Source: Sphingobium xenophagum NBRC 107872 (GTDB taxonomy: Bacteria; Pseudomonadota; Alphaproteobacteria; Sphingomonadales; Sphingomonadaceae). From it: a DNA stretch of 64,000 nt. Below are positions 9,536 to 57,890 of the stretch, piece after piece. The DNA is taken from assembly GCF_000367345.1 (NCBI RefSeq), contig NZ_BARE01000014.1:1-64000 (forward strand). Reading direction: 5' to 3'. Both the position numbers and the translations under genes were made by a program. The stretch's first letter is position 1; every line of letters starts with the position of its first letter. The notes under the pieces were generated by a model. The model was not told the DNA's origin, ran no database searches, and saw nothing but the letters and a program-made list of their open reading frames with translations.

Positions 9536-11593
9536 ATGGCGACCAAGGCGAACAGCAAAAGTGCGGGTGCGGGTGATGGCGGAGATGAAGGTGGCGATGC
9601 CCCGCTGCTCGACCTGAACGAAGCCTCGGTCAAGAAGCTGCTCGCCCGTGCCAAGAAGCGCGGCTACATCACCTATGACGAACTGAACAGCGCCCTGCCC
9701 CAGGACCAGATGTCGTCCGAGCAGATCGAGGATGTCATGTCCGCGCTCAACGACATGGGCGTCAACATCGTCGAAAATGAAGAAGCCGGCGATGATGGTG
9801 AGGACCAGCAGCGCGAGGATGACAATGACGACGCCAATGAAGTGGCGGAGGACGATGACGGTTCGCCCCGGCTGATCACCGAAAAAAAGAAGGAAACGGT
9901 CGATCGCACCGACGATCCCGTTCGCATGTATCTGCGCGAAATGGGCGCGGTGGAACTGCTCAGCCGTGAAGGCGAAATCGCCATCGCCAAGCGGATCGAG
10001 GCCGGTCGCGACACCATGATCCTGGGCCTGTGCGAAAGCCCGACGACCTTCAACGCGATCATCGAATGGTCGACGGCGCTCAACAATGGCGAAATGCAAC
10101 TGCGCGAGATTCTGGATCTCGACGCGATGCTGTCCAAAGACCCTGCGCCTGAAAGCCTGGAAGAAGGCGCCGAGGATGATGATGGCGAAATAAGCGAAAA
10201 GACCGCCGGTCCCAGCTTCAAGGAAGAGGAGGAGCCCGAAGAGGAGTCCGCCGACGCCGACGAGGATGAGGATGGTTCGGGCGAGCGCCGCACCCGCCGC
10301 GCCGAAGAGGAAGAGGAAGAGGACAACACCCTCTCCCTTGCGCAGATGGAAGAAACGCTCAAGCCGATGGCGCTGGAGAAGTTTGCGACCATCACGGAGA
10401 TTTTCCGCGCCTTTTCGAGCATCCAGGCCGCGCGCATGCTGGCCATGGGCAATGGCGACGCGCTGAGCCAGTCGGAAGAGGATCGCTATCACGAACTGCG
10501 CGAAAGCCTGACCGCCGAGGTCGAAAGCGTGCAGTTCCACCAGCAGAAGATCGAATATCTGGTCGATCAGCTTTATGCCTACAACCGGCGCCTGACCGCG
10601 CTGGGCGGCCAGATGCTGCGTCTGGCCGAGCGGCACAAGGTGCCGCGCAAGGACTTTCTCGACCGCTATGTGAACCATGAGCTGGACGATGGCTGGCTGG
10701 ACCGGGTTGCGGGTATCGACAAGAAATGGACCGCCTTCGTCGCTGCCGAAGGGCGCGCGGTGGAACGCATCCGCACCGAGGTCAGCGAAATCGCGCAGGC
10801 GACCGGCATGTCGCTCAGCGAGTTCCGCCGCATCGTCAACATGGTGCAGAAGGGCGAGCGCGAAGCGCGGATCGCCAAGAAGGAAATGGTCGAGGCGAAC
10901 CTGCGCCTCGTCATCTCCATCGCTAAAAAATATACGAACCGTGGCCTGCAATTCCTTGATCTTATTCAGGAAGGTAATATCGGCCTGATGAAGGCGGTCG
11001 ATAAGTTCGAATATCGCCGCGGTTACAAGTTCAGCACCTATGCGACCTGGTGGATTCGTCAGGCGATCACCCGGTCGATCGCGGATCAGGCGCGGACCAT
11101 CCGTATTCCGGTCCATATGATCGAAACGATCAACAAGCTGGTCCGCACCAGCCGCCAGTTCCTGCACGAGCAGGGCCGCGAACCGACCCCGGAGGAGATG
11201 GCCGAGCGCCTGTCCATGCCGCTGGAGAAGGTGCGCAAGGTGATGAAGATCGCCAAGGAACCGATCTCCCTCGAAACGCCGATCGGCGACGAGGAAGACA
11301 GCCATCTGGGCGACTTCATCGAGGACAAGAATGCGATCATCCCGGTGGATGCCGCGATCCAGGCGAACCTGAAGGAAACCGTCACCCGCGTGCTGGCGTC
11401 GCTGACCCCGCGCGAGGAACGCGTGCTGCGGATGCGCTTTGGCATCGGCATGAATACCGACCATACGCTGGAGGAAGTGGGCCAGCAGTTCAGCGTGACC
11501 CGCGAACGTATCCGCCAGATCGAGGCAAAGGCGCTGCGCAAGCTCAAACATCCGAGCCGCAGCCGCAAGATGCGCAGTTTCCTCGACCAGTAA
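9536..11593 (+). CDS. rpoD: RNA polymerase primary sigma factor
   Basis: 685 residues, the vegetative sigma-70. Region 1.1 lies at the N-terminus ([23 protein letters not shown]). Region 1.2 starts at [12 protein letters not shown]. The non-conserved insert about residues 200-265 is strongly acidic (runs of Glu and Asp). Regions 2.1-2.4, about residues 455-530, include [17 protein letters not shown], which melts and reads the -10 element. Region 4.2 near the end ([17 protein letters not shown]) reads the -35 element. It lies downstream of dnaG and is followed by a strong terminator. The identification is certain; the ATG at 9536 is the usual family start. Confidence 0.98.
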
Positions 11594-11739: not shown

Positions 11740-11994
11740 CGTCATCCTGAATTTATTTCAGGATCCATTTCCCGTCACAAGCGGTCCGATTCTGACATTT
11801 GCTACCTTATGGGATAAGGCGTGTTCAAATGTCAGAATCTTTTCGGACCACTAGCAATCTTTTGATTCTAGTGGATTTTACGATTTTGACATTTGCAGGG
11901 CCATCCCAGCCGCCAGGGGATGCAAATGTCAAAATCAATCCACTAGCGGCGACCTGTGGTGCACGATGGATGCTGAAACAAGTTCAGCATGACG
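11740..11994. repeat. Repeat family A palindrome interrupted by an inserted element
   Basis: The left arm (11740-11768) begins CGTCATCCTGAATTT and the right arm (11966-11994) ends TTCAGCATGACG; the arms are imperfect inverted copies of each other, and each is itself a small hairpin. An intact copy lies at 50587-50676 with a 32-nt loop. Here the loop holds a 164-bp element at 11783-11946; without it, 14 + 19 = 33 nt of loop remain, and the join reads AAGC then CGGCG, aligning with AAGCCGCCG in the intact copy. The whole gap between rpoD and the next gene (11594-12189) holds only the terminator, this repeat and flanking repeat-like sequence; I see no gene in it. Confidence 0.88.
11783..11946. 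mobile_element. Double-hairpin element, copy 1 (putative non-autonomous mobile element)
   Basis: 164 bp, about 96% identical to 57682-57849. It has two successive hairpins (11783-11854 and 11868-11946). Both use the stem core TGACATTTG and CAAATGTCA and end in CCACTAG; the second begins CTAGTGG, while this copy lacks the first few bases (CTAGT) of the first. Hairpin 1 has an unpaired CTTTT in its right arm and hairpin 2 an unpaired TTAC in its left arm, so the two are inverted relative to each other, as in paired REP units. It encodes no conserved protein. It is inserted in the loop of a family-A repeat. Confidence 0.85.
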
Positions 11995-12189
11995 ATGAAG
12001 GAGCAGACAGTTCCCTATGCGATACCCCTTTCCCGCCGGGGGAGGATGAACGCTTTCCAAAACGCCATTAGCGGCTTTGCAAAGATCGTGGTCGCCTTTT
12101 TTCTCGTCCGTAAACCGCTCCTTTACCCCGTTCCCGTAGCTTGACCGTCAAATCCCCGCTGGCGGACCGGGGCGAACAGGGAATGGCAT

Positions 12190-56313: not shown

Positions 56314-57639
56314 ATGAACAAGCATCTGATCGCCCTCCCCCTCGTCGTCCTCACGCTGGCCGGCGGCGCATTCCTCTATCTTGCGCAAGGGGACACGGCC
56401 CAGTTGCCACCCGGCGCGGACACGGGGCGCGAACCGGTATTCACCGGACCGCGCAGCGAGATGATCCCGACGGTCAATATCGCCGAAGTAAAGCCCTGGA
56501 CCGCTGGCGAAGCGCCGGTGCCCGCCAAGGGGCTGGCCGTCGCCCGTTTTGCCGACGGACTGTCCCATCCCCGCTCCATGCTGCGCCTGCCCAATGGCGA
56601 TGTGCTGGTGGCCGAAACCAACAGCCCGCCCCGCCCGACCGGCGGCATCGTCAACCGGGTGATGAATTATTTGATGAACAAGGCGGGCGCTGGCGATCCA
56701 TCGCCAAACCGCATCTCGCTGCTGCGCGACGCCGATGGCGACGGGCGGGCCGAAACCAGGACAGCCTTCCTGACCGGGTTGAATTCGCCCTATGGCATGG
56801 CGCTGCTGGGCAATACGCTGTTCGTGGCCAACACGAACGCGCTGATGGCCTTCCCCTACAAGCCGGGCGATACGAAGATCAGCGCACCGGGCCGCAAGAT
56901 ATTGAACCTGCCCGCGCAGGCCCCCAACATGCACTGGACGCGCAGCCTGACCGTCAGCCCCGAAGGGATGCTCTATGTCGGCGTCGGGTCCAACAGCAAT
57001 ATCGGCGAAAACGGGCTGGAAACGGAAGCCAATCGCGCAGCGGTGCTGGAGGTCAATCCCAGGACCGGCGATTATCGCATCTGGGCGTCGGGCCTGCGCA
57101 ACCCGGTGGGCCTGGCCTTCGAACCCAAGAGCGGCGCGCTGTGGGGCGTAGTGAATGAGCGCGACATGCTGGGCAGTGACCTGGTGCCTGACTATCTGGC
57201 GCGGATCGAATTTGGCGGCTTCTATGGCTGGCCGTGGAATTATTGGGGCGGGTATGAGGATCGTCGTGTCCAGCCGCAGCGCCCGGAAATCCGCGAATAT
57301 ACCAAGCGTCCCGACTATGCGCTGGGCAATCATGTCGCCGCGCTGGGTCTGACCTTCGCTGACAAGGTGACGCTGGGCGCGCCCTATACCGACGGCGCGT
57401 TCGTCGGCCTGCATGGCAGCTGGAACCGCAAGCCTGCCGCAGGATATAAGGTGGTGTTTGTCGGCTTCACCGATGGCGAGGCGGGCAAGGCCAAGCCGGT
57501 CGATGTGCTGACCGGCTTCCTCGACCAGGATGGCAAGGCCCATGGTCGCCCGGTCGACGTGACCGCCGACGCCAAGGGCGCGCTGCTGGTCAGCGACGAT
57601 GTCGGCGGCGTGGTGTGGCGGGTGACGAAAGGGAAGTGA
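56314..57639 (+). CDS. PQQ-dependent sugar dehydrogenase family protein (YliI/sorbosone type)
   Basis: 441 residues. The N-terminal hydrophobic segment LIALPLVVLTLAGGAFLYLA is a signal or anchor. The rest is a six-blade beta-propeller of the GDH-B / soluble aldose-sugar dehydrogenase class (ARFADGLSHPRSMLRLPNGD; LTVSPEGMLYVGVGSNSN; WASGLRNPVGLAFEPKSG; VTADAKGALLVSDDVGGVVW). It may oxidise aldose sugars in the periplasm with PQQ; no PQQ biosynthesis genes are in the window. I start at the ATG at 56314, MNKHLIALP. Confidence 0.87.
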   Translation: MNKHLIALPLVVLTLAGGAFLYLAQGDTAQLPPGADTGREPVFTGPRSEMIPTVNIAEVKPWTAGEAPVPAKGLAVARFADGLSHPRSMLRLPNGDVLVAETNSPPRPTGGIVNRVMNYLMNKAGAGDPSPNRISLLRDADGDGRAETRTAFLTGLNSPYGMALLGNTLFVANTNALMAFPYKPGDTKISAPGRKILNLPAQAPNMHWTRSLTVSPEGMLYVGVGSNSNIGENGLETEANRAAVLEVNPRTGDYRIWASGLRNPVGLAFEPKSGALWGVVNERDMLGSDLVPDYLARIEFGGFYGWPWNYWGGYEDRRVQPQRPEIREYTKRPDYALGNHVAALGLTFADKVTLGAPYTDGAFVGLHGSWNRKPAAGYKVVFVGFTDGEAGKAKPVDVLTGFLDQDGKAHGRPVDVTADAKGALLVSDDVGGVVWRVTKGK

Positions 57640-57648
57640 TCCCCAGAT

Positions 57649-57879
57649 CCGTTCGCTTCGAGCGAAGTCGAGAAGCCTTGGCTAGTGGTCCGATTCTGAC
57701 ATTTGCTACCTTATGGGATAAGGCGTGTTCAAATGTCAGAATCTTTTCGGACCTCTAGCAATCTTTGATCCTAGTGGATTTTACGATTTTGACTTTTGCA
57801 GACCCATCCCAGCCGCCAGGGGATGCAAATGTCAAAATCAATCCACTAGACGTTTCTCGACTTCGCTCGAAACGAACGG
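57649..57879. repeat. Repeat family B palindrome interrupted by an inserted element
   Basis: The left arm (57649-57675) begins CCGTTCGCTTCGAGCGAAG; the right arm (57853-57879) is its complement, ending CGAAACGAACGG. In the intact copies at 7452-7525 and 27181-27255 the arms are 15-20 nt apart; here they are separated by the 168-bp element at 57682-57849. The repeat and its insert fill the space between the sugar dehydrogenase and the DUF815 gene (57640-57890). Confidence 0.88.
57682..57849. mobile_element. Double-hairpin element, copy 2 (putative non-autonomous mobile element)
   Basis: 168 bp, about 96% identical to 11783-11946 over the shared part. This copy has a complete left end, CTAGTGGTCCG, and ends CCACTAG, so the outer boundaries are 7-bp inverted repeats. 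Hairpin 1 is 57682-57757 and hairpin 2 is 57771-57849; both have the TGACATTTG / CAAATGTCA type core (one base altered in hairpin 2, GACTTTTGC). It lies in the loop of a family-B repeat. No coding sequence is conserved between copies. Confidence 0.86.
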
Positions 57880-57890
57880 ATATATGCTTG

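What the first reader, a model, noticed from the sequence alone, without database searches (positions are those of the whole stretch)
11783..11946. A 165-bp double-hairpin element, present twice in the window
Seen: two copies (11783-11946 and 57682-57849), about 96% identical, each made of two hairpins with the shared core TGACATTTG / CAAATGTCA and ends CTAGTGG / CCACTAG. Each hairpin has a bulge, on the right arm in the first (CTTTT) and on the left arm in the second (TTAC), so the hairpins are related and mutually inverted, as in paired REP units. The spacer between them (CAATCTTTTGATT) is also partly palindromic. No coding capacity is conserved. Inference: a non-autonomous mobile repeat, perhaps moved by a single-strand (Y1/RAYT-like) or other hairpin-recognising transposase.
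Basis: partly seen in the sequence, partly recalled or inferred. Interest (0 to 1): 0.85.

Follow-up and report, generated by a model that had tools for sequence, protein, structure and literature searches.

The report
Double-hairpin jumping repeat of alphaproteobacteria
A 168-base repeat made of two hairpins is a small gene-less jumping element, found in many alphaproteobacteria and most likely moved by a common bacterial relative of the mariner transposon (IS630/IS870 group), not by the single-strand machinery first suspected.

Summary
Both copies are there, 96% identical, with the hairpins and bulges described. The genome holds five places: three full elements, one half, one single-hairpin hybrid. 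The left-arm pattern is in 27 of 94 genomes of the genus, and related elements occur widely in Alphaproteobacteria. The unit is the 164-171 bp double hairpin. Its arms are unequal: outer arms have 24 positions; inner arms carry 3-5 extra bases in 65 of 66 (A) and 3-4 in 64 of 66 (B) elements. Arms covary within each hairpin, hardly between hairpins.

It is mobile. At two sites, sister species are empty with a single CTAG where this genome has the element between two. The outer ends resemble those of IS630-family elements of the IS870 group (up to 25 of 30 positions, CTAG included), which also lie in CTAG. Likely nature: a MITE moved by cut-and-paste into TA of CTAG. Y1/RAYT is not supported: this genome has no Y1_Tnp match and 9 of 11 element-bearing genomes checked lack one.

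Bolder lead: in Alphaproteobacteria these IS ends, and the element's A end, mostly carry GANTC (the CcrM site) at a fixed position. Caution: only 8 of 30 element-bearing genomes searched hold an L271-like transposase, so the mover is inferred from ends and target.

The parts
11778..11946 (+). Element copy 1 (169 bp), A-B double hairpin; left terminal CTAG decayed to CAAG
11778..11854 (+). Copy 1 hairpin A (77 bp): outer arm 11778-11801, inner arm 11826-11854 with a 5-nt bulge at about 11840-11844
11788..11792 (+). GATTC (GANTC, CcrM-type site) at positions 11-15 of the A end of copy 1
   Evidence: sequence; position counts
11855..11867 (+). Copy 1 spacer CAATCTTTTGATT
11868..11946 (+). Copy 1 hairpin B (79 bp): inner arm 11868-11895 with TTAC bulge 11878-11881, outer arm 11923-11946
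57682..57849 (+). Element copy 2 (168 bp), CTAG at both ends; absent in sister genome G099, where a single CTAG stands
57682..57758 (+). Copy 2 hairpin A (77 bp)
57759..57770 (+). Copy 2 spacer CAATCTTTGATC
57771..57849 (+). Copy 2 hairpin B (79 bp); outer arm 57826-57849 begins, on the reverse strand, CTAGTGGATTGATT, the same first 14 bases as the right end of the IS630-family element in L271

Best explanation
[quoted passage not shown] A transposase of the IS870 group of IS630 elements, supplied in trans, would cut it out and insert it at TA inside CTAG, so one CTAG becomes two. Each outer end is folded back on an inner copy of itself. The inner copies nearly always carry 3-5 extra bases between CTAGTGGNNN and GA..., which breaks the spacing seen in the working ends; I infer that this disables them, so that only the outermost pair is used. 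SHOWN: a multi-copy family in many Alphaproteobacteria; A-B architecture with inner-arm bulges; within-hairpin covariation; exact insertion at CTAG against empty sites; end similarity to IS870-group ISs that also lie in CTAG. INFERRED: the transposase identity, TA rather than CTAG as the duplicated unit, and the role of the bulges.
For: Empty sites: copy 57682 filled GCCTTGG|CTAG...CTAG|ACG against empty GCCTCGG|CTAG|GCG in G099; the C138 copy is empty as GATGATGA|CTAG|GCTTTCC in G020, G094 and G092. Ends: an IS630-family element of 1155 bp with a 370-aa transposase (NF033545, 267 bits) has ends CTAGTGGATTGATTCCAACGTTTGGAACCC and CTAGTGGATTGATCGG; the best identities of IS ends to element ends are 25 of 30 positions, CTAG included. 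A matrix built from element ends (positions 5-30) puts 17 of 31 right ends of ISs from alphaproteobacteria and 7 of 8 on IMG/VR contigs above the 99th percentile of 1725 other CTAG sites, and 0 of 12 from other proteobacteria and 0 of 6 actinobacterial; 7 of the 8 top-scoring 'null' sites lie in fetched IS870-group loci and look like IS ends (one, L383, was on my list and slipped through the filter). Six IS copies in genome G183 with the same printed ends all lie in C|TA..TA|G. The group includes an element annotated IS870 family. In IMG/VR contig L332 an IS end of this group sits at a CTAG in an element's inner-arm bulge. Architecture: 97.4% of cells paired, 24 of 48 pairs changed on both sides, 0 of 500 shuffles; mutual information 4.2 and 5.8 bits within hairpins against 0.5-0.7 between. 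DDE_3 is in 10 of 11 element-bearing genomes and 17 of 30 others.
Against: Only 8 of 30 element-bearing genomes searched have a match to the L271 transposase at E <= 1e-25, some of them fragments. The own genome's IS870-group copy has different ends, CTAGTCACCTGGAACTG. No IS with ends identical to the element was found. IS left ends score much lower than right ends (1 of 31 above the null 99th percentile). Tc1/mariner transposition is not known to need folded ends, so the conserved folding is not explained by the transposase. Three of the five own sites gave no clean empty site: C87 and C122 stand in changed flanks, and copy 11778 had no listed match spanning both flanks outside the own genome (capped list).
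Confidence: 0.78

Rival explanations
1. A REP/REPIN-like repeat moved by a Y1 tyrosine (RAYT) transposase through single-stranded hairpins.
For: Strong hairpins with bulges on fixed arms and mutually inverted pairs, as in REPINs; pairing within hairpins is kept.
Against: No Y1_Tnp match in the own genome; 2 of 11 element-bearing and 12 of 30 element-free genomes have one. Insertion is at CTAG with one CTAG turned into two. No one-sided GTAG foot; low copy number.
Confidence: 0.06
2. The element is kept because it works in the host, for example as a two-way transcription terminator or mRNA-stability hairpin, and mobility is incidental or ancient.
For: Both window copies stand in intergenic DNA: behind the sigma-70 gene that ends at 11593, and between two convergent genes that end at 57639 and 57891. 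Hairpin pairing is kept by paired changes. 22 of 30 element-bearing genomes lack an L271-like transposase.
Against: At the two sites that could be compared, sister species lack the copy. Mismatched cells show no G-T preference (AC 33, GT 25), which speaks against selection on RNA. Outer ends stay close to IS ends.
Confidence: 0.12
3. The within-hairpin covariation is not selection: palindromes correct themselves by template switching during replication, so a change in one arm is copied to the other. This rival concerns the folding, not the mobility.
For: Of 309 cells that depart from the commonest pair, 205 changed on both sides, 23 on one side and 81 are unpaired; L028 and L148 have each lost a bulge, as correction would do.
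Against: The bulges, which such correction would erase, are kept in 65 of 66 (A) and 64 of 66 (B) elements.
Confidence: 0.4

Closest known systems
RUP of Streptococcus pneumoniae with IS630-Spn1
   Same: Small repeat with TA at its termini and terminal repeats like those of an IS630-family IS, thought on indirect evidence to be moved in trans (PMC2229807, passages)
   Different: 107 bp; the passages seen describe no double hairpin with off-spaced inner arms; other host
CIR repeats (CcrM-associated intergenic repeats) of Caulobacter and Brucella
   Same: Two inverted-repeat arms joined by a linker, TA at the termini, GANTC site, intergenic, Alphaproteobacteria (PMC2229807, passages; the 2003 CIR paper is not held)
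   Different: About 110 bp with GANTC at or near a terminal loop; here 164-171 bp with GATTC in the stem, 11 bases from the end
IS870 group of the IS630 family
   Same: Similar ends, CTAG site, TA termini
   Different: Autonomous, about 1.15 kb, with transposase; I saw no fold-back inner arms in the printed ends
Correia/NEMIS elements of Neisseria
   Same: Small, TA at termini, TIR of 24 bp in the review's table (PMC2229807)
   Different: Different host and described layout; sequences not compared here
REP/REPIN with RAYT
   Same: Paired, mutually inverted hairpins
   Different: No Y1_Tnp in this genome, symmetric foot, low copy number, insertion at CTAG

Membership tests
MITE of the IS630/Tc1-mariner family | Short, non-coding, multi-copy | tested here: met
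   164-171 bp in 66 of 66 elements; left-arm pattern in 27 of 94 genus genomes
MITE of the IS630/Tc1-mariner family | Terminal inverted repeats like those of an IS630-family IS | tested here: met
   Up to 25 of 30 positions; 17 of 31 right ends of ISs from alphaproteobacteria above the null 99th percentile, but only 1 of 31 left ends; no identical ends found
MITE of the IS630/Tc1-mariner family | TA target, duplicated | tested here: met
   Single CTAG in empty sites, two in the filled 57682 site; in the C138 copy the right TA reads CG. TA and CTAG duplication cannot be told apart
MITE of the IS630/Tc1-mariner family | Mobilised in trans by the IS transposase | not testable with these tools
   needs a transposition assay
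MITE of the IS630/Tc1-mariner family | Partner IS in the same genome | tested here: inconclusive
   L271-like transposase in 8 of 30 element-bearing genomes; DDE_3 in 10 of 11
REP/REPIN (RAYT) | Y1/RAYT transposase in the genome | tested here: not met
   0 in the own genome; 2 of 11 element-bearing genomes
REP/REPIN (RAYT) | High copy number (over 100 per genome; abstract of PMC2817692 seen) | tested here: not met
   1-11 left-arm matches per positive genome
CIR repeat | About 110 bp, GANTC at or near a terminal loop | tested here: not met
   164-171 bp; GANTC at stem positions 11-15 of the A end in 52 of 66
CIR repeat | Two inverted-repeat arms with linker, TA termini | tested here: met
CIR repeat | Sequence similarity to CIR1-4 | not tested
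   CIR sequences not at hand

The most novel reading that the evidence does not exclude
Transposition of the IS870 group and of this MITE is tied to the alphaproteobacterial cell cycle through CcrM: both carry GANTC at fixed distances from the cut (11 bases in one end, often 24 in the other), with the middle base free, so hemimethylated DNA just behind the fork would open a window for jumping, as Dam sites do for IS10 (recalled). This would also explain why the CIR repeats carry conserved CcrM sites.
Probability: 0.27. Interest if true: 0.8.

Novelty: new variant of a known kind. Interest (0 to 1): 0.6.

Why it matters
It gives a widespread alphaproteobacterial repeat a likely mover (IS870-group transposase) and target (CTAG), replacing the REP/RAYT reading. 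Its layout, two working ends each folded back on an off-spaced inner copy, is a testable design for a MITE that must not use its own inner ends. The fixed GANTC sites offer a direct, cheap test of whether a cell-cycle methylase times transposition, and may tie the old puzzle of CcrM-associated repeats to a transposon family.

Tried and rejected
Y1/RAYT partner: rejected on absence. Rfam family: none at gathering score. Autonomous copy within the 118 fetched stretches: among the lone arms listed I saw truncated elements and chance matches but no IS. Four arms as four co-evolving sites for one protein: not supported, information is shared within hairpins. RNA selection: not supported by mismatch types. 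My first null for end similarity was contaminated by element variants and discarded; it showed that some elements, several from Bradyrhizobium and Xanthobacteraceae, read GATTCTAACATTYG, nearer the IS ends; one search repeats it with elements masked. CcrM reading as settled: held back, because 4 of 6 actinobacterial ISs have GAGTC at position 11 in both ends, so the word may be a transposase contact, and because in a second alphaproteobacterial genus 15 of 21 ISs have it in the left end instead. Rows dropped before counts: 14 ISs with unclear ends (named), 5 unclear, 2 duplicates and 1 without candidate ends, transposases with under 300 residues aligned, exact duplicates, and L296, which had no candidate ends. 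In one search the right end of L340 was mis-called by the script (the right end printed has GATTC at 11); it is counted as a miss. A strict regular expression saw 38 pairs and 78 single hairpins among 116 units in the 118 stretches; the profile search finds a decayed partner beside many of those singles. Papers: searches gave capped listings; nothing I saw in them names this repeat or GANTC in IS630/IS870 ends. The papers that hold the letters CTAGTGG were not opened; PMC9296519, which holds GANTC and IS630, was, and treats them apart. Only open-licence papers are held.

Full report
OBSERVATION. The window holds the two copies described, at 11778-11946 and 57682-57849, 96% identical. As single-stranded DNA the first folds to -47.1 kcal/mol, z -9.8, 0 of 200 shuffles as good. 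The own genome (4.49 Mb, 138 contigs) has five places: three full elements, one A hairpin alone (C122), and one single hairpin made of the A outer arm and the B outer arm (C87).

DISTRIBUTION. A match to the element, full or partial, was found in 16 of 61 genomes: 14 of 37 of the genus, own genome included, and 2 of 24 others. The left-arm pattern with up to 2 mismatches is in 27 of 94 genomes of the genus, 78 matches by my addition, 1-11 per positive genome; the reversed pattern gave 0 in all 94. The 80 record titles shown name taxa that I know as Alphaproteobacteria, except 2 unassigned Proteobacteria MAGs. It is not a census. The element in Sphingobium sp. AP50 (L094) reads the same as that of G110 of the window's genus (L069), so the genus is probably Sphingobium (inference).

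ANATOMY. In the 118 stretches, which the pattern had picked for at least one good hairpin, a profile search kept 137 hits: 98 full double hairpins (6 at stretch edges), 16 A-type, 14 B-type and 9 other partial ones. So the pair is the usual unit. In the genus, of 30 loci fetched out of the 78 matches, 21 were full, 2 A alone and 7 single hairpins with both outer ends (my reading of its rows). In 66 distinct full elements the outer arms have 24 aligned positions; the inner arms have 3-5 extra bases in A (65 of 66) and 3-4 in B (64 of 66). Pairing holds in 97.4% of cells; 24 of 48 pairs show changes on both sides (205 cells; 23 cells changed on one side, 81 unpaired); 0 of 500 shuffles reach this, and slid controls pair 29-42%. 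Related sequences can exceed such shuffles, as the tool warns, but the slid control keeps relatedness. Information is shared within each hairpin (4.24 and 5.76 bits summed) but little between hairpins (0.52-0.70). The paired changes are therefore a property of each hairpin, not of four sites read by one protein. Mispairs are AC 33 and GT 25, which gives no hint of RNA. Whether selection on folded DNA or template-switch correction keeps the pairing is open; the persistent bulges speak for some selection.

MOBILITY. Joined flanks of the five own sites were searched in 94 genomes of the genus. For copy 57682, G099 aligns through with one CTAG where this genome has CTAG-element-CTAG; four more distant relatives shown beside it also lack the element, with diverged junctions. 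For the C138 copy, G020, G094 and G092 are empty with one CTAG, while G009 carries the element at the same place (L023); there the right TA reads CG in both filled species.

MOVER. The own genome has no Y1_Tnp; of 41 genomes, 2 of 11 with the element and 12 of 30 without have one. DDE_3, the IS630 catalytic family, is in 10 of 11 and 17 of 30. Among the ends of 30 DDE_3 loci, one, L271, has ends CTAGTGGATTGAT..., the first 14 bases of its right end being those of the element's B outer end. It encodes a 370-aa IS630 transposase whose stop codon lies in the terminal CTAG. Its relatives include an element annotated as IS870 family (H6, 74% identity). Their ends were collected by script. Best matches to element ends are 25 of 30 positions. 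For the IS in L414 the first 30 bases of the right end close with CATTTGCATCCC and of the left end with TGACATTTGAATCCC; the same words close element ends, for example L197 A and L114 B. A matrix of element ends separates IS870-group right ends from 1725 other CTAG sites: 17 of 31 from alphaproteobacteria, 7 of 8 on IMG/VR contigs, 0 of 12 from other proteobacteria and 0 of 6 actinobacterial are above the null 99th percentile; left ends reach it in 1 of 31 and 0 of 8, 12 and 6. Six IS copies in G183 with the same printed ends all lie in C|TA...TA|G. The title of Tenzen and Ohtsubo 1991, seen in a reference list, states TA in CTAG for IS630, and ISY100 duplicates TA by cut and paste (PMC2170065, passages). 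AGAINST: 8 of 30 element-bearing genomes searched hold an L271-like transposase at E <= 1e-25, some as fragments, and the own genome's group member has other ends.

HOW IT WORKS. Most likely the transposase binds the two outer ends and moves the element into CTAG. In IS right ends from alphaproteobacteria the GANTC word starts at position 11 in 28 of 31, as in the outer A arm; the inner arms are off by 3-5 bases, which I infer makes them dead ends (not tested).

THE CcrM LEAD. With C of CTAG as 1, GANTC starts at position 11 of the right end in 28 of 31 ISs from alphaproteobacteria, with all four middle bases (A 12, T 8, C 6, G 2), in 8 of 8 on IMG/VR contigs (host unknown), in 1 of 12 from other proteobacteria (G544, 78% complete), and in 4 of 6 actinobacterial, there GAGTC each time and in both ends. 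At position 24 of the left end: 14 of 31, 7 of 8, 1 of 12, 0 of 6. In a further alphaproteobacterial genus, 6 of 21 have it at 11 of the right end; the other 15 have it at 11 of the left end, by my reading. The rows are related by descent and are not independent. In the elements, the A end has it at 11 in 52 of 66 and the B end at 24 in 20 of 66; A at 24 is 1 of 66 and B at 11 is 0 of 66. The own genome has a CcrM-like gene (RAMA domain, G000:C138:46398; a 376-aa methyltransferase-like ORF), and among 14 control genomes only Caulobacter rings. CcrM is described as highly conserved in Alphaproteobacteria (PMC9296519, passages). The actinobacterial cases mean the word may simply be a transposase contact.

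KNOWN KINDS. The nearest are RUP with IS630-Spn1 and the CIR repeats, both known to me here through passages of a review (PMC2229807). CIR shares two arms, a linker, TA ends and GANTC, but differs in length and in the place of GANTC; the CIR paper is not held, so kinship is untested. REP families of the GTAG and CGTC kinds are 20-40 bp and tagged at one end (PMC3733652, abstract, passages). In the capped listings and the passages cited I saw nothing naming this repeat or GANTC in IS630 ends.

VERDICT. A real, widespread IS630-type MITE with an unusual folded layout: a new variant of a known kind.

Noticed in passing
window 57648-57680 and 57850-57880: Copy 2 lies between two inverted copies of another palindromic repeat (ATCCGTTCGYTTCGAGCGAAGTCGAGAA); the same pair surrounds the single CTAG of the empty site in G099.
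   Followed up: partly
window 11740-11775 and 11970-12000: Copy 1 lies between stretches that look like another repeat (GTCATCCTGAA..TTCAGGATCC and GCTGAAACAAGTTCAGCATGACG).
   Followed up: no
L332:7757-7882: IMG/VR contig in which the end of an IS870-group element stands at a CTAG in the inner-arm bulge of a double-hairpin element; cut by the contig end.
   Followed up: partly
L334, L335, L338: IMG/VR contigs (8-20 kb) with two full copies each; inner CTAGs are decayed in 5 of 6 copies, while 7 of 12 outer CTAGs are intact.
   Followed up: no
L271:958-2070: The transposase frame of this IS ends in the TAG of the terminal CTAG, so the target supplies the stop codon.
   Followed up: no
L113, L117, L120, L136, L156 (Novosphingobium): A shorter, single-hairpin form of about 73 bp with two outer-type arms recurs in Novosphingobium.
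   Followed up: partly
L416-L425, L428-L430, L435, L436: An IS870-group subgroup in another alphaproteobacterial genus with GANTC at 11 in the left end and often a second at 33.
   Followed up: no
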